Source: a virus
Virus record (IMG/VR): IMGVR_UViG_3300030109_003790
Span: 22,528 to 42,892 of that record
Length of the DNA stretch: 20,365 nt
Strand: one strand, 5' to 3'
A program made the translations under genes and the position numbers. The stretch's first letter is position 1. Each line of letters starts with the position of its first letter. The notes under the pieces were generated by a model that saw nothing but the letters and a program-made list of their open reading frames with translations, was not told the origin of the DNA and did no database searches. Positions 1-18,407 of the stretch are shown one piece after another.

Positions 1-1058
1 TTAAGGGAGAAAATAAAGAAGCGTTGACTAAAAGTATTGAGACATTAATTAATGCTTATTCATCTCATTTAGATAATTGTATTAAGTCTATTTATTGGTT
101 ATCTAAATATGAATACCCTCTAAAACAAATGTCATTTAATGAAATGGATTTGAAAAAAATTCATTCAGTTAAGGATTATGATAGAAGGTCAGAATTAGTT
201 GATATTTTATGTAAATATTGGGAAGCCGATTTAGAATTAAAAAATACTACTTATTCTACACAATATTCTAAACTAAATAAAGAGCGCACTTCTAATAAAA
301 AAGATTTTAGAAAATTCATTAAAGCAATTAATCCCCAAATGTTTAAGAAGTCTGTTTCAGAACAAGTTAACGATTATATTTTGAAATCTGTTTGTGAAAG
401 GCCCGGTATTTCTGCTAGACAAATTTATGATAACATGGAGAATAAGTTACATAAAAGAACATCGCCCCAAATTATTTCTAAAATGGTAAATAGATTGGGA
501 ATTACTAGTGTAGATGGTGCTTATTATAAATTGTCAGATAATATTAAAAAGGACTTATATTCATATACTGCGTCATTTATTGATTCTGATGGCTATATTA
601 CTATTGATAAAAATTATAACCCAAGAGTAGGATTAGTAGCGACAGGGGATAGAGGTAAAGCCTTTATGATTGAAATACAAAAGGAATTAGGAATAGGTAA
701 ATTACATCTTGACCAAAAATCCCCACAAGGCACGCGACCAGTTAATAGATTAAATTTCTATTCACAATCTGATATTCATGAATTACTTACTAAGTGTCGC
801 CCTCATTTTAGAATGAAAGGTAGAAATGCAGATTTGCTTTTGGAATTAGTTCGTATGAAAAAATCTTACAAGAAAGCAGATTGGTATAAGAATCGTTGTG
901 AAGAAATTTTTAAACTTATGAAATATGAAAATCACAAAGACCATGTTGGGTACGATTTTACAAAATATGGTATTGATTTTGAAACAGTTGCTAAGTTGCA
1001 TGACAATTGTAAAATGGGAATTATGGATGATTTAGAAGCGATTGTTAAAGAGGACTAG
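1..1058 (+). CDS. LAGLIDADG endonuclease-like protein with winged-helix region (5' partial)
   Basis: The reading frame is open to the left edge, so the true start lies upstream. A TTG at 24 is possible but has no convincing ribosome binding site. Numbering from that TTG, residues 1-110 are helical and unrecognised. Residues 115-170 look like a winged helix-turn-helix (SARQIYDNM, then PQIISKMVNRLG). Residues 182-190 (TASFIDSDG) match a LAGLIDADG helix, and the fold continues with strand YITI, the helix KAFMIEIQKELGIGKL and a distal PHFRMKGRNADLLLEL segment typical of LAGLIDADG_1 domains. Only one LAGLIDADG motif is visible, so a nuclease would need to dimerise or have a second motif upstream. 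Genes just before a portal gene often encode terminase, so this could be the tail of an intein-bearing or HEN-interrupted terminase, or a free-standing homing endonuclease or regulator. The LAGLIDADG fold call is fairly firm; nuclease activity is not shown. Confidence 0.6.
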   Translation, partial: KGENKEALTKSIETLINAYSSHLDNCIKSIYWLSKYEYPLKQMSFNEMDLKKIHSVKDYDRRSELVDILCKYWEADLELKNTTYSTQYSKLNKERTSNKKDFRKFIKAINPQMFKKSVSEQVNDYILKSVCERPGISARQIYDNMENKLHKRTSPQIISKMVNRLGITSVDGAYYKLSDNIKKDLYSYTASFIDSDGYITIDKNYNPRVGLVATGDRGKAFMIEIQKELGIGKLHLDQKSPQGTRPVNRLNFYSQSDIHELLTKCRPHFRMKGRNADLLLELVRMKKSYKKADWYKNRCEEIFKLMKYENHKDHVGYDFTKYGIDFETVAKLHDNCKMGIMDDLEAIVKED

Positions 1059-3992: not shown

Positions 3993-4592
3993 ATGAATTG
4001 GTGGAGTATTATTAAAAGAAGTCCTTATTTAGACCAAGCATCTTTAAATTATCAGGAAAATTTAATGGGTAGAGGGACCGGTCAAACTACATTTCAAACT
4101 GAACAGAATGTTGGTCCTAATCCAATTCCTCAACAAACATCAACCCAAACGCAAGTAACTCAACCTAAATTACGTTCCGGTCAACAACAATTAGATTTAG
4201 TAAATGTATCAAATCAACAAATCAATGCCCCAAGTGTACAAACATATCAACCATCACAAGCACAACAATTAGATATACAAGAATTGCCTAAAGACCAAAA
4301 AACTTTGCAAGAGTATGAAAGGGAAGAAAATCAAATTAGTAATATAACGCAAAATATTTCTCAACCGACTACGGCAGATAGTGGAACTGATGATTCAGAT
4401 GTTGGTGAAATTAGAGAAAATGTTAATCGTGCAAAACAAAATTTATCTCAATTACCAAGAGGGCCAAAAGCAAAGGTTTTAACTCAAGTATTAACTGATT
4501 TATCAGCCGCAGCAATTGACCCTGTTAATCAAAAAGATACTGCAATAGCAGCAAAAAAGAAATTACAAGAAGCATTCCCACAAGTATCATAG
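3993..4592 (+). CDS. Gln/Asn/Thr-rich low-complexity protein with N-terminal W motif
   Basis: The protein has 199 residues and starts MNWWSIIKRSPYLDQ, the shared W-x-x-I-I-K motif. Residues 25-110 are low-complexity, very rich in Gln, Thr, Asn and Pro, and probably unstructured. The final 70 residues look helical and Ala-rich (ENVNRAKQNLSQL, then VLTDLSAAAIDP and TAIAAKKKLQEAF). No enzyme motif is present. TAAGGTGATT at the junction fuses the portal stop to the ribosome binding site. It may be an internal head protein delivered through the W motif, or a flexible scaffold-associated factor; both are inference. Confidence 0.75.
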   Translation: MNWWSIIKRSPYLDQASLNYQENLMGRGTGQTTFQTEQNVGPNPIPQQTSTQTQVTQPKLRSGQQQLDLVNVSNQQINAPSVQTYQPSQAQQLDIQELPKDQKTLQEYEREENQISNITQNISQPTTADSGTDDSDVGEIRENVNRAKQNLSQLPRGPKAKVLTQVLTDLSAAAIDPVNQKDTAIAAKKKLQEAFPQVS

Positions 4593-8674: not shown

Positions 8675-11203
8675 ATGTCATCTGGCGGGTTGTTGTTTGA
8701 AAAGGATATAAATCCTGTTTCAAGGCGTATTCAGCGTCTTTTTGAAGGCGTTAGAGCAGCCTATCTATCTGCAAAACAAGACCCAAAGGAATACAGTAAG
8801 GCATGGAAAAAAGAAGTTGATGCCTTATATGAAGATTACAACGCTACTGATGATTTAGCATCAGCACTACGGGAAGTAATTAATGACGATGATATAGAAT
8901 CTTCTGATGTAAAAAATCCTGAATCTAATACTGCTTCAAAAATATACGAAGCAATTAAAGAACTACGATATGAGTCTGAACACGTAAAAGACCCATTTGT
9001 AAAGAAATTTAAAGACCAAACATTAGAATCTTTAATGAAGGATAAAGGTATTCTTGCATCATTTATTCATTGGGTTATGAGAAGAAGCAAAAATGCTCTT
9101 CCAATTGAAGTTTGGGAAAAGTACCTACCTAGAGGCGACCAAATTACAGACGGGTATGTGGGTCTTGACCTACATAGTAAGGACATACCCCTCTACATTA
9201 TGGAGCATTACGGTGAAAAGAAAGACACACAAGCAGTTAAAGCAAAAGTTAAGGCTGCTATGGGCTTATTAGAGCGTATATACAAAGAACATTACAGTGA
9301 GTCGAAGTGGAAGTTGTTGCTTGGCGTAGAGATATTGAAAGAAGAAAAAGAAGATATTGATTTTATTAAACCAAATAAACCCATGTATAGAATTTTTGAA
9401 TTGGATGATATAAATGAATTACGAGGCTTTACCGGTGAATGGTTGGTTCAAGAAAAATATGACGGAATGAGAGTTCAACTACATAAGATTGATGATAAAG
9501 TAAAAATTTATTCTTTTAACGGTAAAGACATTACTGATAAATGTCCAAAACAAGTAGAGATTCTTGAGCAAAAAAAGTTCGGTGAATGTATTTTAGATGC
9601 TGAATTAATGTTGTTTGAGAAAGATAGGCCTTTACATAGAGCAAAGGTTGTTTCTCATGTTTTTAAAGGAGTAGAAACTGAAGGTGATTTAAAGGTTCAT
9701 GTGTTTGATATTATGAGGCATAATGAGAGGGATATGACAGAAGAACCTTTACAAGATAGAATTCAAATTTTATTCCAAAATTACTCCATGCATTCTGATG
9801 AGTTATTGGCATTCCCTTCAAAAAAGGATACTAGAATTGCTGATAGCATTAAAGATATTGGTGAATATGCTAAAGAAATAATGAAGATACCAACAGCCGA
9901 AGGTGTGGTTATTAAAGATTTAACTTCTACTTATATTAGAGGAGCAAGAAAAAACCCTAAGTGGATTAAATGGAAGAAATTTGTAGACTTAGATTTAGTT
10001 GTGTTAGATAAGAGTTCAACTAAGTCAAATATGTTTTCTTATACTTTAGGCGCAGGACCATTAACAATTGAGGAATCTAGAAAAATGGATTCTATGAAAG
10101 TAGATGATAGGTATTATCTAAATGTTGGTAAAGCGTTAAATACTAAAGTTGATGTTGACATAGGTTCTATTATTCGAGTTAAGGTTGACGAAGTTAGAAA
10201 GAATAAAAAGGGTCAATTTAGAGTTTATACTGCACAGTTTGTTGAAATACCCGAAGTTAATATGCCTGATAAGGTAATTACTTTAGAGTTTTTAGCAGAC
10301 TCAAAGGATGGTAAATCAACTGAGTATAAAACCTCAGCACTAACTAAAGCAATCTTAATTACTGATAATGTTCATGGTGAGGCTGAAGTTATTTGTAAAG
10401 AAGATTTAGATGGTTTTACTATTTATGGATTTAAGGAAGATAACTTAATGGCTAAAAATGCTATGTTAGATATTGATTTATGGAAAGAACAAATTGGTGA
10501 AATTTATAAAGAAAGAAAGGGCAAATTTAGAGTTGGCATCAAAAACTTCCTAGAAGAGCAACCTGAAAATACTGCTACTCTTGATGAGATTTTAGATTAC
10601 ATTAGTAAAAATAAAGGTTTATTACAATTGTATGAAGATATATTTAATAGTAAATCTAGAGAATTAAAAGAATTCTTAACAAACCAAGCAGATGAAATTA
10701 CTTATTCAACTAATAATAAATTTGTTGCAGATGATTCAATAATTGAAAAAGATGATTCTGATTACAAGACACCTAAAAATTATAGAAATGGTAAATTTAA
10801 ATTATATCTAAGAAAAGATGAAAATTTATCTTTAACCTTTATGTTAGATGATGCTAAATTGGGTTGGGAAATAGATATTAAATCAGTTGATGATGTATTT
10901 GATTTATTTGGCAAAGCGGGTAAATATCCTGCTCAAGTCCAAAGAACGGTATCTAAGGAAAAGTTAATTGATGAAGGTGATGTTGAATTAGGTGTTCAAA
11001 GACATGGTTATCATGAATATTTTATTAAGGGTGATAAATTTGATACAAAGTTACATTTGAGAGTAATACCTTTAAAGGGCCAAAAACAATGGTTAGCCTT
11101 TACTAGTTTTGAAGATGAACCTGTTGACCCTAAATCAGATGATGGAATATGGGATATTCGGGAGGACAAGAACAAAGATTTGTCCTTCTCGACCCTTGAT
11201 TGA
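8675..11203 (+). CDS. ATP-dependent DNA ligase-like multidomain protein
   Basis: The protein has 842 residues. Residues 1-235 are helical and unrecognised. Residues about 235-450 form a nucleotidyltransferase core. Motif I is QEKYDGMRVQ, with K261 as the expected AMP-accepting lysine. CILDAELMLF is motif III-like, EGVVIKD (E409) is motif IV and KWIKWKK (from K429) is motif V. Residues about 460-560 look like an OB fold (DIGSIIRVKVDEVRKNKKGQ). The C-terminal 130 residues contain GVQRHGYHEYFIKGDKF and LHLRVIPLKG, then QWLAF; this vaguely recalls the 3'-phosphoesterase domain of LigD, but only weakly. Family knowledge predicts sealing of nicked duplex DNA with ATP. Its place just before the prohead protease is odd for a ligase and suggests a virion-linked role. 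The start has only a weak AAGGTAT ribosome binding site. Ligase fold confidence is high; the terminal domains are unassigned. Confidence 0.82.
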   Translation: MSSGGLLFEKDINPVSRRIQRLFEGVRAAYLSAKQDPKEYSKAWKKEVDALYEDYNATDDLASALREVINDDDIESSDVKNPESNTASKIYEAIKELRYESEHVKDPFVKKFKDQTLESLMKDKGILASFIHWVMRRSKNALPIEVWEKYLPRGDQITDGYVGLDLHSKDIPLYIMEHYGEKKDTQAVKAKVKAAMGLLERIYKEHYSESKWKLLLGVEILKEEKEDIDFIKPNKPMYRIFELDDINELRGFTGEWLVQEKYDGMRVQLHKIDDKVKIYSFNGKDITDKCPKQVEILEQKKFGECILDAELMLFEKDRPLHRAKVVSHVFKGVETEGDLKVHVFDIMRHNERDMTEEPLQDRIQILFQNYSMHSDELLAFPSKKDTRIADSIKDIGEYAKEIMKIPTAEGVVIKDLTSTYIRGARKNPKWIKWKKFVDLDLVVLDKSSTKSNMFSYTLGAGPLTIEESRKMDSMKVDDRYYLNVGKALNTKVDVDIGSIIRVKVDEVRKNKKGQFRVYTAQFVEIPEVNMPDKVITLEFLADSKDGKSTEYKTSALTKAILITDNVHGEAEVICKEDLDGFTIYGFKEDNLMAKNAMLDIDLWKEQIGEIYKERKGKFRVGIKNFLEEQPENTATLDEILDYISKNKGLLQLYEDIFNSKSRELKEFLTNQADEITYSTNNKFVADDSIIEKDDSDYKTPKNYRNGKFKLYLRKDENLSLTFMLDDAKLGWEIDIKSVDDVFDLFGKAGKYPAQVQRTVSKEKLIDEGDVELGVQRHGYHEYFIKGDKFDTKLHLRVIPLKGQKQWLAFTSFEDEPVDPKSDDGIWDIREDKNKDLSFSTLD
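11163..11186 (+). other. Hairpin at the 3' end of the ligase-like gene
   Basis: AGGACAA (11163-11169) pairs with TTGTCCT (11180-11186) around a 10-base loop. It lies inside the last codons of the ligase-like gene, 17 bases before its stop. It could slow transcription or protect RNA ends ahead of the protease/capsid block, but there is no clear U-run and it may be chance. Confidence 0.3.
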
Positions 11204-11239: not shown

Positions 11240-12724
11240 ATGTCGGCGGCGTCTATGCTTAAGACTGTAAATATGAATCCAATGGATTTTACAATAATAA
11301 AGTCAGATGATTTACATATTGGTGGATATGCGTCTATTGAGATTGTTGATAAGCAAAATGATTTGATTACACTTGAAGCATTAGGTGAGGCAGTAACTAA
11401 GTTTATGGTCGATACAAAATATAGAAATGTAATGACAAACCATTCTAATGTTCAGGTCGGAGAAGTAATTAAAGAATACCGAGATACAACAGGAAGATTG
11501 TGGAAAACTGGCGTAGATGATGTTGGCTTTTTTGTTGTAATTAAATTAAGAGATGATATTGAAAAGGCTAAAGAAGTTAGTCGAGAAATTAGAAAGGGTA
11601 CTTTACGTTCATTTAGTATTGGAGGCCAAGCATTAGAAAAGCGAAAGCGAAATAATGAAGAATTGGGCGACTACAATGAGATTAGTAAACTAGAATTACA
11701 TGAAGTTACTATTTGTGAAAAAGGTATTAACCCTGAAGCAAAGTTTGATATTCTAAAACAGGATGTGGGCGGCATGACAAATATTGAAGATGCAATTAAA
11801 GAATTAAATAGTCTATTGAAGGCTATTGGTGAAGGTGGAGAAACACCTGATGATGTAGAGGCTAGATTACTTGGATTAGCCGCAGAAGGTTCAGCAAGAT
11901 TTGGACCTGAAGATACTACTGGTGCATCATTACCATTAGATACTCCTTCAGAACAAGAAATGGAAAGAGGCAGATTACAAGCAGAAGAAGATGATATTTC
12001 TGCAAAAAGAGAAGATATGGATAAGGCCCATTGTGGCACAAATAAATTAGATAGTGAAGAAAAAGGTTCCGATAACACGGAGGAATTGAAAATGAAAGAA
12101 GAAGAAATGGACAAAGGGGAATATATGGATTCCTCCGATGACGAAGAAAAGTTGATGGATGAAGACAAAATGGCTCATAAAGGGGCTGGCGACGATGAAG
12201 AAATGAAGGGAGAAACTGATTTACCAACAGGTTATCTTGAAAGAGGCGAACAGTCTGAAGTTGTTGTTGAAGGCGGTAAGCCACGAAACAAGCACCAGCA
12301 GATTTCTGTACCTACAAATGCAAATCCAACTGATGTCGGTAAATCAACATGGACTGGCGAAACACATGGTCTTGACCTAAGCCACGAAAATCTTGAAAAA
12401 GCCTATCAACAGTTTAAGGCAGAGCAAATGGAAAAACTTGCTTATGAAGATATTAAGCGAAGTTTCTCTGACCGACTTACCTCAGAATTGGCTGTTAAGA
12501 AGGCTAATGTTGAGCGAAATGAATATGACGCTCAGGCTGAAGTTAGCGAACTAAAGAAGCAATTTAGCGAATTACTTGATACTCTCAAGAATGATGCTGA
12601 AATGACAATTGCAAAGCAGCAAAAAGTTGTTGCTGATTTAAATATTCCATCTTACGAGGACATCGCAAAGATGGATTGGAATGAAATTCACCTAACAATG
12701 CAGCGTTTGGAGGAACAACGCTGA
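11240..12724 (+). CDS. Prohead protease (XkdF/S78-type) fused to scaffold-like tail
   Basis: The protein has 494 residues. Residues 15-172 match the prohead serine protease fold: GGYASIEIVDKQNDLI, then TNHSNVQVGEVI (H68), LRSFSIGG (S126) and LELHEVTICEKG (E155) as the probable catalytic set by analogy with phage proteases of the XkdF/S78 group. Residues about 180-370 are acidic and low-complexity. Residues 380-465 are a coiled coil (AEVSELKKQFSELLDTLK). The final 27 residues form a helix with IAKMDWNEI that recurs in the gene at 7729. In tailed viruses such a protease removes scaffold and capsid delta regions during head maturation. The fusion suggests that protease and scaffold come from one polypeptide, freed by self-cleavage (inference). 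No separate scaffold gene lies between it and the capsid gene. Arg codons change to CGA near its end. Confidence 0.85.
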   Translation: MSAASMLKTVNMNPMDFTIIKSDDLHIGGYASIEIVDKQNDLITLEALGEAVTKFMVDTKYRNVMTNHSNVQVGEVIKEYRDTTGRLWKTGVDDVGFFVVIKLRDDIEKAKEVSREIRKGTLRSFSIGGQALEKRKRNNEELGDYNEISKLELHEVTICEKGINPEAKFDILKQDVGGMTNIEDAIKELNSLLKAIGEGGETPDDVEARLLGLAAEGSARFGPEDTTGASLPLDTPSEQEMERGRLQAEEDDISAKREDMDKAHCGTNKLDSEEKGSDNTEELKMKEEEMDKGEYMDSSDDEEKLMDEDKMAHKGAGDDEEMKGETDLPTGYLERGEQSEVVVEGGKPRNKHQQISVPTNANPTDVGKSTWTGETHGLDLSHENLEKAYQQFKAEQMEKLAYEDIKRSFSDRLTSELAVKKANVERNEYDAQAEVSELKKQFSELLDTLKNDAEMTIAKQQKVVADLNIPSYEDIAKMDWNEIHLTMQRLEEQR

Positions 12725-12745: not shown

Positions 12746-12752
12746 AGGTGAG
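12746..12752 (+). promoter_or_regulatory. Ribosome binding site that fixes the capsid start at 12757
   Basis: AGGTGAG lies 4 bases before the ATG at 12757. A GTG at 12748 is in frame but sits inside this site, so it cannot be served by it. The ATG is therefore the start. Confidence 0.8.
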
Positions 12753-12756
12753 AAAA

Positions 12757-14091
12757 ATGACAAAATATATTAACACTTTGAAAGACTTGGAAGCCGCAAC
12801 ATACGGTAACTTTGGAAATAACAATATTCTAAAGGGTGCTGGACTTGTTGCTGGACTTCACACAGGACACGATGACGCAACTGCATTGAATGGTACGGCT
12901 GGACCGGGATTAAACCTATACAATGTAATTTACGGCCAAAAGGTTTGGTCTATGCTAAATCAGGAAATTAATCCTCTTAGTATTTTACCAAAGCGACCTT
13001 ACACTTCAAGTGGATGGCGTGTAATGACCCAAAGACCCGCTGGTGGTTCTGACCCTGCATTTGGAATTGGCGATACGGCTTATTCTGCTGGTTCTCAACT
13101 ATTAGCACCTAAAGCAGACCGAATTGGTGGTGTAGATGAAAATCACGCATTAGGAACTGCTGGATTACAAGCACTAGCACCAGAATATACCACACTATTT
13201 ATGAGTCCTAAGACTATTGCTCATATGTTCGATTATTCGGAACTTGCAGCAGAAATGGCAAAGATTGATGATGGTGTTGGAGATATTCGCGCAATTATTC
13301 GAGAAGATATGGGTAAATTCCATGCTGAGGTTCAGTCTAAAATGCTAGTTATGGAACTAGAGCGATATGACCATGCTTCAGTTGCAGCAAACAATTTAGA
13401 GCGAAATTACACTTCTTTAAACAAGATTGTTGCTTCTGCTCTTGAATTGCAAGCATTAAAGGGTGCTAGTTTAATTGCTGGTACTGTTGGTTCACTACCT
13501 GACCAAATTGCAAAGATTTACGGTAATGATGACCGAGATACTTCATCAGGTGTAACTGCTGGATTTATGGATGCAACAGTTAACTTTGGTGCAGGTTACG
13601 GTTCAAGCCAAGTACGAGCATTGACAACAACTCTCTTGAATACTCTAATTCAAGAATTGCGAACTGCTGGTGGTACTCCAAAGGTTATCTTAACTGGATA
13701 TGATACTATTCAGACTATTGCTGACCTATTGCAGAGCCAAGAGCGATTCCTTGAGCGAAAAGAAATTATTCCTACACATGGCGGAGTAAAGGGTGTAAAG
13801 GGCCGAGAAGTCGGTTTCCGAGTAGCGACATATTTCGATATTCCGCTAATTCCTGCTAAGGATATGCCAAATACAGGAGCAGCAACTACTCAAGTTAGTG
13901 ACCTGCTTTTCCTTGATACTGACCATTTGTGGCTTTCAGTCATGAAACCAACTCAATACTTTGAAGATGGTATTAATCATGGAAACCCATTCGGTATCGG
14001 AACTCTTGGAAATCGAGGTATGTTCCGAACAATGGGCGAAACAGGATGCAGTTTCTTTAAGGGACAAGGCAAATTGACAAATGTACAGTGA
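12757..14091 (+). CDS. Major capsid protein (HK97-fold, inferred)
   Basis: The protein has 444 residues from the ATG set by the ribosome binding site. It directly follows the protease-scaffold gene, the usual order. An N-terminal Gly/Ala-rich arm of about 60 residues precedes ILPKRPYTSSGWRV, then a long spine-like helical region (DDGVGDIRAIIREDMGKFHA) and a nucleic-acid-free beta-rich C-terminal half with LDTDHLWLSVMKPTQYF. No catalytic motif is seen. Codon use is distinctive: 14 of 17 Arg codons are CGA, against about 1 of 45 in the large gene at 4834, and Leu uses more CTA/CTT. That fits strong expression or a separate origin. Assignment rests on order, size and composition; the HK97 fold itself was not verified. 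No obvious delta domain is present, so the scaffold function is probably in the protease fusion. Confidence 0.82.
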   Translation: MTKYINTLKDLEAATYGNFGNNNILKGAGLVAGLHTGHDDATALNGTAGPGLNLYNVIYGQKVWSMLNQEINPLSILPKRPYTSSGWRVMTQRPAGGSDPAFGIGDTAYSAGSQLLAPKADRIGGVDENHALGTAGLQALAPEYTTLFMSPKTIAHMFDYSELAAEMAKIDDGVGDIRAIIREDMGKFHAEVQSKMLVMELERYDHASVAANNLERNYTSLNKIVASALELQALKGASLIAGTVGSLPDQIAKIYGNDDRDTSSGVTAGFMDATVNFGAGYGSSQVRALTTTLLNTLIQELRTAGGTPKVILTGYDTIQTIADLLQSQERFLERKEIIPTHGGVKGVKGREVGFRVATYFDIPLIPAKDMPNTGAATTQVSDLLFLDTDHLWLSVMKPTQYFEDGINHGNPFGIGTLGNRGMFRTMGETGCSFFKGQGKLTNVQ

Positions 14092-15321: not shown

Positions 15322-15702
15322 ATGGCAGCAATTAATAAAGACACAAGATTGGTTATGACAATTTTATTTGTCGGTGCAGTAAGTGGAATGAATGTGTATT
15401 TCTACGCTAATTATGGCGCAGATTTACCTTGGACAAAATTATCTCATGCAGTTCTCTTTTCGTTATTAACGATTGGGGGAATCATGGGTATTAAGGCGTT
15501 CTTTGATTTAATTATGAATGACCGAATGGAACTTTGGTTATTGGATAGAAAAATCAAAACCTATTGGGAAAAGAAAGCGCGTGAAGAACAGCAAAAGCAG
15601 AAAGTTATGGAAAGTATGCGGTCGCAAGGTTATTTCAATAATAATAGCCCATACCAACAACCTCAAGAAATTGGGATTGAATTCTTAGAACAAAATATGT
15701 GA
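15322..15702 (+). CDS. Small protein with two membrane segments
   Basis: The protein has 126 residues. Residues about 10-29 (LVMTILFVGAVSGMNVYFYA) and 42-64 (AVLFSLLTIGGIMGIKAFF) are hydrophobic membrane spans. A charged helix follows (LDRKIKTYWEKKAREEQQKQ), then a Gln/Asn/Pro-rich tail. Two spans plus a charged tail are compatible with a holin, but also with a membrane anchor for another protein. The gene is followed within 1.3 kb by another membrane protein and a membrane-anchored GTPase. GGTGG is the ribosome binding site, fused to the previous stop (TAAGGTGG). Confidence 0.7.
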   Translation: MAAINKDTRLVMTILFVGAVSGMNVYFYANYGADLPWTKLSHAVLFSLLTIGGIMGIKAFFDLIMNDRMELWLLDRKIKTYWEKKAREEQQKQKVMESMRSQGYFNNNSPYQQPQEIGIEFLEQNM

Positions 15703-15711
15703 TGTGGTTAA

Positions 15712-15930
15712 ATGGGATGGTTTTTCCCCGATATTTTTGGTGTTGATGAGCAAAATTTGGCTTATGATATGAGTCGCGCCCATTCAGCAGATGTTTGGTT
15801 TTTAAAAGTGAGGTTTTGGTGTTGGGGCATTGTTGCTTCAACTGCTTCTTTACTTATTGGTAATATAGCAGGTTCTTTAGGTTTTAATATTTTTGGTGGA
15901 TTATTCGACTTAATAAAAGAATTATTATAG
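15712..15930 (+). CDS. 72-residue membrane protein
   Basis: The sequence starts MGWFFPDIFGVDEQNLAYDM and has a strongly hydrophobic second half, residues about 33-68 (VRFWCWGIVASTASLLIGN, then AGSLGFNIFGGLFDLI), making one or two spans. The last residues (KELL) are amphipathic. The W in position 3 is not followed by the I-L-K of the shared motif, so it is not counted with those proteins. It could be a holin partner or part of a membrane complex with neighbours. Start: ATG after ATGTGGTTAA, with the upstream stop TGA inside the same junction. Confidence 0.65.
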   Translation: MGWFFPDIFGVDEQNLAYDMSRAHSADVWFLKVRFWCWGIVASTASLLIGNIAGSLGFNIFGGLFDLIKELL

Positions 15931-15938
15931 GTGATTAA

Positions 15939-16109
15939 ATGAAATGGAAAGATATTTTAAAAAATAAGAAACAAGGTATTACACGCCAATTAAGAAAGCC
16001 TGATTACATAGATTTAGACAAAGATGGTGACAAAGAGGAACCAATGGCTGAAGCAGCAAAAGATGCTAAAAAGCATGGAATTAAACATCAAATAAAGCGT
16101 GGTGATTAA
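15939..16109 (+). CDS. 56-residue protein with W motif and EF-hand-like loop
   Basis: The ATG at 15939 follows TAGGTGATTAA, which contains the previous stop. The frame ends with TAA at 16107-16109, one base before the next ATG. It starts MKWKDILKNKKQ, the shared motif. Residues 25-36 (DLDKDGDKEEPM) look like a calcium-binding loop of EF-hand or dockerin type (D-x-D-x-D-G), but the usual Glu in position 12 is Met, so binding is uncertain. The rest is basic and helical (AKDAKKHGIKHQIKRGD). Similar DxDxDGxKKEPM proteins are familiar to me from marine phages. Confidence 0.75.
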   Translation: MKWKDILKNKKQGITRQLRKPDYIDLDKDGDKEEPMAEAAKDAKKHGIKHQIKRGD

Positions 16110-16110
16110 T

Positions 16111-16434
16111 ATGAGTTGGAAGGATATAATTAAGCAGAATCCTGTTCCATTCGCCAACCAATTGGGGGCGGGTCAACAAGGTCAAAGAGATGGGAAAATA
16201 TTTGCAATTATGCAACAATTACCTAATGATTTACAAGAATTACAGAAAGGGGTTACTAATAAACAAAATGGTATTAGAACTGCTGAACAAATGAAAACTA
16301 GATTAGATGAATTAATTAGATTATTTAATGAACCGGATACAATGCCACAACCCGGTGGTATGACTCCACCTAATCCCTCACTTCAAGGTATGACTCCACC
16401 CCAAACTATGACTCCCCCTCAAACTCAACAATAG
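16111..16434 (+). CDS. 107-residue protein with W motif and Pro-rich MTPP repeats
   Basis: The start ATG 16111 follows GGTGATTA. In-frame GTG codons at 16099 and 16102 overlap the previous gene and its ribosome binding site, so they are rejected. The N-terminus MSWKDIIKQNPVPFANQL has the shared motif. A helical centre (IFAIMQQLPNDLQELQKG, then EQMKTRLDELIRLF) precedes a Pro/Gln/Thr-rich tail with three MTPP units. No family is recognised. The motif suggests cargo or scaffold contact; the tail is probably flexible. Confidence 0.75.
   Translation: MSWKDIIKQNPVPFANQLGAGQQGQRDGKIFAIMQQLPNDLQELQKGVTNKQNGIRTAEQMKTRLDELIRLFNEPDTMPQPGGMTPPNPSLQGMTPPQTMTPPQTQQ
16360..16419 (+). repeat. Degenerate repeat encoding MTPP units
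   Basis: ATGACTCC(A/C)CC occurs at 16360, 16390 and 16408 within the gene at 16111, giving (G)MTPPNPS, (G)MTPPQT and MTPPQT. Copies differ at one base and in spacing, so the number of units may vary between relatives. Confidence 0.6.
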
Positions 16435-16439
16435 GTGAT
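16433..16439 (+). promoter_or_regulatory. Ribosome binding site for the GTG start at 16445
   Basis: AGGTGAT lies 5 bases before GTG 16445. An ATG at 16443 is out of frame and meets TAG after 14 codons, so GTG is taken as the GTPase start. The overlapping ATGTG could reduce expression of the GTPase. Confidence 0.65.
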
Positions 16440-16444
16440 TTCAT

Positions 16445-17107
16445 GTGTCATTACTCGCAGGTTTTGCAGTATTCTTTGCTGAAATAGGTATTGCCATTTA
16501 CAATAGATTACACGCTTACCCATTTGGAATTTATGGAGCAGAAAGAGTAGGTAAAACTACATTAGCAAGACAATTACAAACTAGGGGAGAAGTACCTGAT
16601 ATTAGGAAAAGAACAGATGGTATTCAAAGTCCAACAAGAAAAATGATTAAAATTGATGGGGATGTTAGAACCATTAAAAGTAGTGATGTTGGAGGACAAG
16701 CAGTATATTGGAAAGAATGGGAAGGCGATATGCGAAAAAGAGGAGTAGAATATATTATTTTTATGATTGACCATAGGCATTTAGAAAGTAATATGAATTT
16801 AGATAATCAACTAGCATGGAGATATTTAGTGGATGTTATTCTAAATAAAAGATGGTCAAATGGTAAAAAGAAAAAGGATAAAGATTACCCGAAAGCAATT
16901 GGTATATGGGCAAATAAATTTGATTTATGGGGGAAAGAACTTGACTTTAGAGAAGAACTTAACAACCATGAAATATTTGAACCGTTCAAGATGGGCATTC
17001 AACAACTCAATGAAATTGGAATACCTTGCTACAAATACGTCGTGTCTGCCAAAACAGACTCAAAAATGGTTTACAGAGGAATAACCACAATGATTGATGA
17101 TTATTAG
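16445..17107 (+). CDS. Arf-like small GTPase with N-terminal membrane segment
   Basis: The protein has 220 residues from a GTG start. Residues 3-19 (LLAGFAVFFAEIGIAIY) are a membrane span. The G motifs follow in order: G1 GAERVGKTT (31-39), a G2 candidate PT (63-64) in SPTRKMIKIDGD, G3 DVGGQ (81-85), then the strand EYIIFMIDHRH, G4 ANKFDLW (N157, K158, D160) and G5 VVSAKT (199-204). The spacing and DVGGQ, rather than DTAGQ, match the Arf/Gα/SRPRB branch, where GTP-driven switching controls membrane binding. Here a membrane span replaces the myristoylated Arf helix. The Gln of DVGGQ, needed for hydrolysis in Arf, is present. Neighbours include two small membrane proteins upstream. Family knowledge supports GTP binding; a role in virus assembly, entry or lysis at the host membrane is inference. 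MglA-like or other archaeal GTPases are alternatives. Confidence 0.85.
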   Translation: MSLLAGFAVFFAEIGIAIYNRLHAYPFGIYGAERVGKTTLARQLQTRGEVPDIRKRTDGIQSPTRKMIKIDGDVRTIKSSDVGGQAVYWKEWEGDMRKRGVEYIIFMIDHRHLESNMNLDNQLAWRYLVDVILNKRWSNGKKKKDKDYPKAIGIWANKFDLWGKELDFREELNNHEIFEPFKMGIQQLNEIGIPCYKYVVSAKTDSKMVYRGITTMIDDY

Positions 17108-17116
17108 GTGATTTAA

Positions 17117-17761
17117 ATGGTAGTTGGTTTTAATCCGGGTTTGTTGGGTAATCCTGCGGGAACATTTGGTTCTCCAATTGATAGCCTAAACGCTAGAAAT
17201 CCCGGTCCTGTAATTGAATACAAATATAAAAGTGCTAAACCAAAAAAACAACTTAAGGAAATACGTAAGATTTTATTACCCGAAAAGAAAAAATTCTTAT
17301 TCTTAAAATATGGTTTTAAATTTAATATGCGTCACCGATGCGTAGTATGTGGTTCATTACATGAATGGGAAATGTCTGACCCAATGCGGCCACCTTTACC
17401 ATTATCATTAGTAAATAAAGGCAGACCATTACAAGGTAATTATTGCCCAAAACACGCAGCATTTTTTAAACAAATGGAGATGCTTGAGCAGAAAATTTTA
17501 GCAGAAGAGAATGGATTAGAATTTAGAAATTTTATTCCAAAACCTAAGATGCCAATTATTAAAAGTGGCCCTACTACTAATCTTAATCAATCAGATATTG
17601 CTTCCTTAATTTCACTTGGATGGGTTATTGAACCGCCAAGGGGAACTAAAGAAGGTGCTTATGAACAATATACAAGATTAATGTTAGATGTTCAAGGAAA
17701 ACTAGCACAAATGCAAAAAATAATTCCAATGATGGAGGTTGAAAATAATGGTGAGGAGTAG
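17117..17761 (+). CDS. 214-residue protein with CxxC/CxxH zinc site, unknown function
   Basis: The N-terminal 35 residues are Gly/Pro/Asn-rich and flexible. A basic segment (KPKKQLKEIRKILLPEKKKF) leads to RHRCVVCGSLHEWE, with C75, C78 and H82, and then YCPKHAAFF with C110 and H113, probably one zinc ion. A helix (KQMEMLEQKILAEENGLEF) follows, and then SDIASLISLGWVIEPP, which recalls a small helical end-binding segment. The C-terminus is helical. TTAGGTGATTTAA fuses the GTPase stop to the ribosome binding site. It overlaps the next gene by 14 bases. I do not recognise a family; neck or tail structural roles are possible from position. Confidence 0.7.
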   Translation: MVVGFNPGLLGNPAGTFGSPIDSLNARNPGPVIEYKYKSAKPKKQLKEIRKILLPEKKKFLFLKYGFKFNMRHRCVVCGSLHEWEMSDPMRPPLPLSLVNKGRPLQGNYCPKHAAFFKQMEMLEQKILAEENGLEFRNFIPKPKMPIIKSGPTTNLNQSDIASLISLGWVIEPPRGTKEGAYEQYTRLMLDVQGKLAQMQKIIPMMEVENNGEE

Positions 17762-18407
17762 TACACTAAACAATGCGTTGGCAAGTAGCCAACAACAAAA
17801 TTTTAAGACGGTAAATAATCTCTTGACGCTTCAAGAGAATCATGTAGAAGAATTCTTTCAATATCACGGTGAAGAATTTATGCAAGCGTTTGAGAAACTA
17901 ATGGAAGATACTATTAAAAGAACAGTATCTGAAATGTTATCACAATTAGAGTTTTCATTAGATGCAGGTAATGGTAGCATCAAACTAATTGATAAGTGCC
18001 TTTTAAACTATCAAAGAGTTACTCAAGAAAATATCGACTTAGATATTCAATCTTTACTTAACACCGCAGTTAATTCAGAAGTAATTATGCAGCGTAAAAT
18101 GGCTAAACAGCAATATCTCGAAAGTCAAGGATTTAACCCTTCAACGAGCGGCCAAAATAGCCAAATGACGGTCCAGCAGGGGGTCGGCATGGGTGCGGCT
18201 CAAGGAGGCTACGGAGGGGCGGCTATGGGCATCAATCAGGGCTTACAGAGCGGCTACCCAATCCCCCCTAATGGGTATGACCAAATGAATAACCCATATT
18301 GGCTTGACCCCAATACAGGGCAAATAACTTATTCTCCACCAAATAGCGGTTTAGGCTTAGGAAACAAATTAGTCAAGGCCGCATCATGGGCTAAATGGCT
18401 CGCTTGA
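17748..18407 (+). CDS. 219-residue protein with helical head and Gly/Gln/Pro-rich tail
   Basis: The ATG at 17748 follows GGAGGTT at good distance. An in-frame TTG at 17739 lies within that site and is rejected. Residues 10-115 are helical and charged (EEFMQAFEKLMEDTIKRTV, then NIDLDIQSLLNTAVNSEV). From about 130 on the sequence is Gly/Gln/Ala-rich (GVGMGAAQGGYGGAAMGINQ), then Pro/Asn-rich with NNPYWLDPNTGQITYSPP, and ends with a short basic helix. The tail is encoded by an unusually GC-rich stretch (about 65% in 18171-18270). The gene overlaps its upstream neighbour by 14 bases. No family is recognised; a flexible head-tail or tail protein fits. Confidence 0.7.
   Translation: MVRSSTLNNALASSQQQNFKTVNNLLTLQENHVEEFFQYHGEEFMQAFEKLMEDTIKRTVSEMLSQLEFSLDAGNGSIKLIDKCLLNYQRVTQENIDLDIQSLLNTAVNSEVIMQRKMAKQQYLESQGFNPSTSGQNSQMTVQQGVGMGAAQGGYGGAAMGINQGLQSGYPIPPNGYDQMNNPYWLDPNTGQITYSPPNSGLGLGNKLVKAASWAKWLA
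18171..18270 (+). other. GC-rich island inside the gene at 17748
   Basis: By hand count 65 of 100 bases are G or C, far above the flanking DNA. It encodes the Gly/Gln-rich tail with GGC, GGG, GCG and CAG codons that are rare elsewhere in the window. Confidence 0.75.

What the first reader, a model, noticed from the sequence alone, without database searches (positions are those of the whole stretch)
15322..17107. Membrane-protein cluster around the GTPase: possible GTP-driven membrane module
Two small membrane proteins (15322, 15712) and a membrane-anchored GTPase (16445) occur within 1.8 kb, with two W-motif proteins between them, in one tightly coupled gene run. This could be a lysis/egress, entry or membrane-tethered assembly device. 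A simple holin set is the plain alternative, but it would not explain the GTPase.
Basis: inference. Interest (0 to 1): 0.7.

Follow-up and report, generated by a model that had tools for sequence, protein, structure and literature searches.

The report
Arf-like GTPase module of archaeal viruses
Tailed viruses that probably infect abundant marine archaea carry a small Arf-type molecular switch that is always encoded next to two small membrane proteins, a combination we know from no other tailed virus, and it may be how they reshape or leave the cell.

Summary
The genes are real. The window is the late/structural region of a magrovirus-like archaeal Caudoviricetes record. TMa (2 TM helices), TMb (1 TM helix) and a GTPase form a conserved unit: 46 of 46 relatives found by capsid protein alone, with room to tell, carry all three in order. 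The GTPase has intact G1, G3, G4 and G5, an N-terminal hydrophobic helix, and stronger purifying selection than the capsid protein. By fold and by its DxGG(Q/E)+Trp signature it is Arf/Arl-like. A second clade (GTPase ~35% identical) keeps TM-TM-GTPase-g25-g26 although the block sits ~20 kb upstream of the capsid gene instead of just behind it, so the module itself is conserved. The two W-motif proteins are not part of it: 148 of 161 distinct relatives have nothing there, and other inserts are unrelated proteins sharing a virus-wide MWxxILK N-terminal tag. No holin, endolysin or ArvB/ArvC homology was found. Best reading: a GTP-switched membrane module acting late, most likely in membrane remodelling for assembly or egress. 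Module and GTPase identity are well supported; the function is inference.

The parts
15322..15702 (+). TMa: 126-aa membrane protein, two TM helices then a charged cytosolic helix; conserved C-terminal 'FL' motif in clade 1
   Evidence: homologues in 381 IMG/VR stretches; dN/dS 0.067; the clade-1 homologue used in the fused model matches an unnamed 133-aa viral protein, A0A516M0F4, at 99%
15712..15930 (+). TMb: 72-aa membrane protein, conserved N-terminus (AYDxxRAHSAD), one TM helix, amphipathic C-terminus
   Evidence: directly follows TMa in 252 of 252 loci
15939..16109 (+). W1: accessory insert, 56 aa, starts MKWKDILK; EF-hand-like loop DLDKDGDKEEP; not part of the conserved unit
16111..16434 (+). 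W2: accessory insert, 107 aa, starts MSWKDIIK; not part of the conserved unit
16445..17107 (+). Arf-like small GTPase, 220 aa, N-terminal hydrophobic helix then G domain (G1 YGAERVGKTT, G3 DVGGQ, G4 NKFD, G5 SAK)
17117..17761 (+). g25: 214-aa protein with conserved CxxC...YCxxH, probable metal site; conserved downstream of the GTPase in both clades
   Evidence: (profile-profile E 1e-7 between clades)
17748..18407 (+). g26: ~220-aa protein with Q/G/P-rich tail; conserved downstream of g25 in both clades
   Evidence: (E 3e-4, weak); ATG 17748 preferred over TTG 17739
12748..14091 (+). major capsid protein (HK97 type), context
   Evidence: tblastn to HCTV-1 major capsid protein E 9e-13
11240..12724 (+). 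prohead protease (Peptidase_S78), context
   Evidence: Pfam E 5e-9

Best explanation
TMa, TMb and an Arf-like small GTPase form a virus-encoded, GTP-switched membrane module, with g25 and g26 as probable effectors. Shown: a conserved gene unit across two divergent clades, intact GTPase motifs, an Arf/Arl-type fold match, predicted membrane helices. Inferred: the GTPase sits on the cytosolic face of the host membrane through its N-terminal helix; TMa and TMb, whose conserved soluble parts are predicted cytosolic, dock it there; on GTP binding the complex recruits g25/g26 and remodels the membrane late in infection, most likely so that virions can assemble at, or leave through, the membrane. Split confidence: real conserved module with an Arf-like GTPase 0.95; role in membrane remodelling for assembly or egress about 0.4.
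For: Order MCP-TMa-TMb-GTPase-g25-g26 in 41 of 41 capsid-anchored loci with over 6 kb behind the capsid gene, triad in 46 of 46 with over 4.5 kb. Single GTPase copy in 20 of 20 large (86-115 kb) records of both clades. Module kept with a ~35%-identical GTPase in a different genomic position. Pairwise distances of the five genes correlate with each other at r 0.76-0.89, GTPase with MCP 0.73. VIA-align: all 50 listed rows are Arf/Arl (Asgard ArfR included) or G-alpha type, best Z 14.3 with rmsd 3.2 over 157 residues. Best PDB sequence match of the two-clade profile is 8oun, E 6e-5, with DxGGQ and the Trp seven residues on aligned; that Trp is invariant in 213 of 213 viral proteins. Late-gene location. 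Precedent: an archaeal Arf-like GTPase, ArvA, drives vesiculation with two operon partners (PMC10927574).
Against: No direct evidence for membrane localisation, nucleotide binding or any role. TMa and TMb of the two clades share no detectable sequence homology, only size class, topology and order. ArvB/ArvC homologues are absent. Foldseek alone ranks Ras/Rab above Arf. The GTPase model is only moderate (pLDDT 68) and no complex is shown.
Confidence: 0.45

Rival explanations
1. Timed lysis device: TMa and/or TMb form a pore (a holin without homology to known holins) and the GTPase is its gate or clock.
For: Two small 1-2 TM proteins among late genes, no recognised lysis gene in this window; TMa of clade 2 has a very weak similarity to the SLATT 2-TM domain (E 0.043, far below cut-off).
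Against: No holin/endolysin similarity; holins are not known to be chained to an enzyme more conserved than the capsid protein; the SLATT similarity is not significant.
Confidence: 0.2
2. Membrane-tethered assembly or packaging platform: the module anchors procapsid, portal or terminase at the membrane and GTP licenses a head-assembly step.
For: The block lies just behind the head genes in clade 1 and just upstream of a zinc-finger (TerS-like) gene and the large terminase in clade 2.
Against: Haloarchaeal relatives with related capsid proteins (HCTV-1 and hypersaline records) lack the GTPase, so head assembly of this type does not need it; the block can move away from the capsid gene.
Confidence: 0.2
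3. Host takeover: the viral GTPase mimics or competes with a host Arf/ArvA-type GTPase to block vesiculation, division or superinfection.
For: Arf-like kinship; the euryarchaeal Arf-like GTPase ArvA controls vesicle output (PMC10927574).
Against: Host-takeover genes are usually early and patchy; this one is universal in the records tested, lies among late genes and is as conserved as the capsid protein. Whether the host encodes ArvA was not tested.
Confidence: 0.12
4. Virion component acting at entry: the membrane proteins ride in the particle and help DNA cross the membrane.
For: Location within the structural gene block.
Against: The HFTV1 head-to-tail structure paper (PMC12494034), searched for transmembrane, membrane protein, GTPase, lysis and holin, has none of these terms; a GTP switch in an extracellular particle would have no obvious use.
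Confidence: 0.08

Closest known systems
ArvA-ArvB-ArvC vesiculation operon of Haloferax volcanii and other archaea (PMC10927574)
   Same: Small Arf-like GTPase with an N-terminal membrane-binding helix, in a conserved operon with dedicated partners, one of which (ArvC) is a zinc-ribbon protein; g25 here also has a Cys/His metal-type motif.
Arf/Arl/Sar and SRP-receptor-beta branch of the Ras-like small GTPases (incl. Asgard ArfR)
   Same: Fold, DxGG(Q/E) G3, Trp at G3 Gln+7, N-terminal membrane helix.
   Different: Only weak sequence similarity (Pfam best E 2e-5 and weaker); Glu commoner than Gln at the catalytic position in clade 1 (117 of 141); clade 2 has MATR instead of SAK.
Rab/Ras GTPases of giant viruses (mimi-, pitho-, klosneuviruses)
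   Same: Virus-encoded Ras-like GTPases; the named GTPase matches in the viral structure library are of this kind.
   Different: Rab/Ras/Ran-type, eukaryotic hosts; not known to be linked to two membrane genes in a tailed-virus late block.
Holin/endolysin cassettes of tailed phages
   Same: Small 1-2 TM proteins among late genes.
   Different: No homology; constant GTPase partner; no endolysin gene recognised nearby.

Membership tests
Ras-like small GTPases, Arf/Arl-like branch | G1 GxxxxGK[ST], G3 DxxG, G4 NKxD | tested here: met
   141 of 141 clade-1 and 70-72 of 72 clade-2 proteins
Ras-like small GTPases, Arf/Arl-like branch | Arf-type G3: DxGG followed by Trp seven residues after the Gln position | tested here: met
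   213 of 213; same spacing in the aligned chain 8oun
Ras-like small GTPases, Arf/Arl-like branch | Fold of the G domain | tested here: met
   predicted model: all 50 listed VIA-align rows Arf/Arl or G-alpha type, Z 14.3 to 12.4, best rmsd 3.2 over 157; Foldseek hits Ras/Rab/Arl; model pLDDT 68
Ras-like small GTPases, Arf/Arl-like branch | GTP binding and hydrolysis | not testable with these tools
   needs protein
Ras-like small GTPases, Arf/Arl-like branch | Placement on a tree with Arf rather than Ras/Rab | not tested
   no reference set at hand; Pfam counts are mixed (MMR_HSR1 31, Ras 28, SRPRB 28, Arf 7 of 31)
ArvABC archaeal vesiculation operon | ArvB (OapB, PF09846) partner | tested here: not met
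   0 of 12 viral records, Haloferax control rings
ArvABC archaeal vesiculation operon | ArvC (OapC, PF09845) zinc-ribbon partner | tested here: not met
   0 of 12 viral records, Haloferax control rings
ArvABC archaeal vesiculation operon | GTPase orthologous to ArvA | tested here: inconclusive
Holin/endolysin lysis cassette | Homology to known holins or endolysins | tested here: not met
   PHROGs, Pfam, NCBIfam without such hits
Holin/endolysin lysis cassette | Membrane permeabilisation | not testable with these tools
   needs an expression assay
Magrovirales (the virus) | Caudoviricetes structural module related to Druskaviridae | tested here: met
   capsid protein similar to HCTV-1, E 9e-13; prohead protease and ligase
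Magrovirales (the virus) | 90-110 kb genome with own family-B polymerase (split in Aoguangviridae) | tested here: met
   in relatives of 80-96 kb: two PolB pieces in 5; clade 2 a single PolB in 9 of 9. The window's own record is a 42.9-kb fragment and was not tested
Magrovirales (the virus) | Match to a named magrovirus genome | tested here: inconclusive
   ON649702, OR863078 and PP497039 are not in the collections

The most novel reading that the evidence does not exclude
Magroviruses, among the commonest viruses in the surface ocean, leave or remodel their archaeal host with a dedicated Arf-type GTPase machine (TMa-TMb-GTPase-g25-g26): a GTP-driven membrane-remodelling or non-lytic exit not known for any tailed virus.
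Probability: 0.25. Interest if true: 0.9.

Novelty: new variant of a known kind. Interest (0 to 1): 0.62.

Why it matters
How tailed viruses of archaea leave their hosts is largely unknown, and the magrovirus papers that could be read here name no lysis gene. A universal, strongly conserved Arf-like GTPase tied to two membrane proteins is a concrete, testable candidate. It would extend Arf-type membrane switching from eukaryotes and archaeal vesicles to tailed viruses.

Tried and rejected
GTPase against annotated phages (INPHARED): no match for either clade, so no annotated relative to borrow from. Pfam, NCBIfam and PHROGs: nothing over cut-off for TMa, TMb, g25, g26. g25 against PDB sequences: none. 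HCTV-1 genes between head and neck: one small TM protein (gp116) in the equivalent place but no P-loop, so at most a distant analogue. Papers on magroviruses: the GTPase is not mentioned where searched; Philosof 2017 and Prabhu 2025 are not held and Zhou 2023 was not looked up, so an earlier annotation cannot be excluded. Fused TMa-TMb-GTPase chain as a stand-in for a co-fold: TM helices and G domain come out, but pTM is 0.54 and contacts are not given, so it was not used. Bacterial origin (three contigs in a Maricaulis MAG): rejected, misbinned virus contigs. Structural matches whose titles name toxin complexes are to the Arf chains in them.

Full report
What the window is. The window is positions 22528-42892 of a 42,892-base virus record. 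It runs from behind the large terminase through portal-like genes, a DNA ligase, a prohead protease (Peptidase_S78, E 5e-9) and an HK97-type major capsid protein (MCP) related to that of HCTV-1, a Druskaviridae member (E 9e-13). Close relatives have 80-96 kb records with a family-B polymerase in two pieces, as described for Aoguangviridae, order Magrovirales (PMC10768690). Named magrovirus genomes were not in the collections, so 'magrovirus-like' rests on these features, and the Poseidoniales host is inferred from the literature on that order.

Check of the observation. All five ORFs are there, 1-10 nt apart, with GGTG-type ribosome sites. TMa has two hydrophobic segments, TMb one, and the GTPase a hydrophobic N-terminal helix. 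Codon-level selection between close pairs is purifying for every member: median dN/dS 0.047 GTPase, 0.067 TMa, 0.119 TMb, 0.061 g25, 0.142 g26, against 0.111 for the MCP.

Is the set conserved? IMG/VR holds 369 stretches encoding the GTPase, 381 for TMa and 557 for the MCP (pattern-limited counts). The test that is not biased by the query is the MCP-anchored one: of 80 loci, 34 end within 4.5 kb of the MCP; the other 46 all hold TMa, TMb and GTPase, and in the 41 with over 6 kb the order is MCP-TMa-TMb-GTPase-g25-g26 without exception. Over all 284 loci then held, 200 with room carry the triad and only HCTV-1 lacks it; TMb directly follows TMa in 252 of 252. Loci with TMa but no GTPase all stop within 311 nt of TMa.

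The W-motif pair is accessory. In 148 of 161 distinct clade-1 loci the GTPase starts within 60 nt of TMb. Of the 13 with more, 12 hold ORFs here; these are unrelated in sequence (two weakly acetyltransferase-like), but every one begins with the same tag, M(S)WxxILK. The tag is virus-wide: 3.3 hits per 1000 residues in the first 20 residues of genes against 0.21 elsewhere, and by my count nineteen proteins of the record's own 42.9 kb begin with it. The W genes therefore say something about the tag, not about the GTPase module.

A second, distant clade. A scan of bacterial and archaeal genomes with the GTPase profile found three contigs, all in one Maricaulis MAG and clearly virus contigs. One, L287, carries a GTPase 35% identical, preceded by a 210-aa two-TM protein and a 90-aa one-TM protein, and followed by a small AbrB-like gene, a g25-like and a g26-like gene. 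IMG/VR holds 170 relatives; 62 of 62 clade-2 loci with at least 2.5 kb upstream have both membrane genes. Profile-profile comparison between clades: GTPase E 6e-37, g25 E 1e-7, g26 E 3e-4 (weak), TMa and TMb not detectable. In this clade the block does not follow the MCP: it lies about 20 kb upstream, ahead of a zinc-finger gene and the large terminase, and the genes behind the MCP are other head and neck genes. Of 15 further marine records found by a distant MCP query, 10 have the GTPase at that distance; the five without it end less than 20 kb upstream of their MCP (the comparison of coordinates is mine). HCTV-1, the hypersaline relatives and three shorter non-marine records have none. So the block TM-TM-GTPase-g25-g26 is what is conserved, in two genomic settings. 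Twenty of 20 large records of both clades have exactly one copy. In clade 1 the pairwise distances of the five genes track each other (r 0.76-0.89), GTPase-MCP 0.73; physical linkage may contribute.

What the GTPase is. G1 (YGxxxVGKTT), G3 (DxGG) and G4 (NKxD) are present in nearly all 213 sequences; SAK (G5) in clade 1, MATR in clade 2. The residue after DxGG is mostly Glu or Gln, with a Trp invariably seven residues further, the arrangement of Arf and G-alpha proteins (Arf1 from my own knowledge; 8oun). Pfam scores are weak and mixed: MMR_HSR1, Ras, SRPRB, Roc, Arf. The two-clade profile's best PDB match is 8oun, named GTP-binding protein (E 6e-5); the neighbouring entries 8oum and 8ouk are titled Asgard Arf GTPases. 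Structure prediction (pLDDT 68) followed by VIA-align gives Arf/Arl or G-alpha type proteins in every one of 50 rows, Z 14.3-12.4, while Foldseek puts Ras/Rab first. I conclude Arf-like within the Ras-like superfamily, exact branch unresolved. In the viral structure library the named Ras-like GTPases that match come from giant viruses.

How it probably works (inference). By the positive-inside rule TMa has both ends in the cytosol, TMb its conserved N-terminus in the cytosol, and the GTPase its G domain in the cytosol. All conserved soluble parts thus face the same side, as a docked membrane switch needs. Arf-type proteins recruit effectors and bend membranes when GTP-bound; in Haloferax the Arf-like ArvA, with two operon partners, drives vesicle release (PMC10927574). 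A late viral module of this make is best explained as a membrane-remodelling device for assembly at, or exit through, the membrane. Membership in the ArvABC system is not met: OapB and OapC families are absent from 12 viral records while the Haloferax control rings. A holin set is not excluded mechanistically but has no homology support and leaves the GTPase unexplained. The fused-chain prediction did not settle contacts.

Novelty. No annotated phage record holds this GTPase, and the papers searched do not mention it; key magrovirus papers could not be read. The fold is known; the viral use and the company it keeps appear new.

Noticed in passing
virus-wide; in window 15939-16434, 1602-1988, 1990-2256, 3993-4592; inserts in L087, L089, L100, L125, L143, L006, L194, L202, L062, L004: Short N-terminal tag M(S)WxxILK on many otherwise unrelated proteins of clade 1 (15-fold enriched in the first 20 residues), including acetyltransferase-like cargo; clade 2 has its own version, MNPFDxAWxLLK. 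Looks like a docking or capsid-targeting signal comparable to T4 internal-protein leaders.
   Followed up: partly
L058:8179 and 9605; L059 (record position 17581): Internal and C-terminal copies of the same W tag (KKSWWDTLK, KKSWEDILK, ITWFSILKEE at a protein's end), as if the tag could sit at a junction or end.
   Followed up: no
L059:3832-5828 (record ~18832-20828, upstream of the window): Five tandem paralogous genes, each with the W tag followed by VQ(V/I)LDT(S/T)xxLSSINEPM and a diverged remainder.
   Followed up: no
window 8675-11203: ATP-dependent DNA ligase domain (Pfam E 3e-29) inside an 842-aa protein placed in the head gene block just before the protease, an unusual place and size.
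   Followed up: no
window 3-1058: ORF with LAGLIDADG-like YTASFIDSDGYI motif just behind the large terminase: probable homing endonuclease.
   Followed up: no
L285, L286, L287 (NZMJ01000024, NZMJ01000101, NZMJ01000140): Three magrovirus-like contigs of two clades are binned in one Maricaulis sp. IN14 MAG: contamination of a bacterial reference genome.
   Followed up: partly
L287:4013-4687 and L058:10201-10866: Similar zinc-finger proteins with paired CxxC units upstream of the large terminase in both clades: candidate small terminase or DNA-binding packaging factor.
   Followed up: no
L061:17203-17532 (HCTV-1 gp116): The haloarchaeal relative has a single small TM-plus-coil protein at the place between head and neck genes where clade 1 has the module.
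   Followed up: partly
L287:1951-2145: A small AbrB/MazE-like protein sits between GTPase and g25 in most clade-2 members, not seen in clade 1.
   Followed up: no
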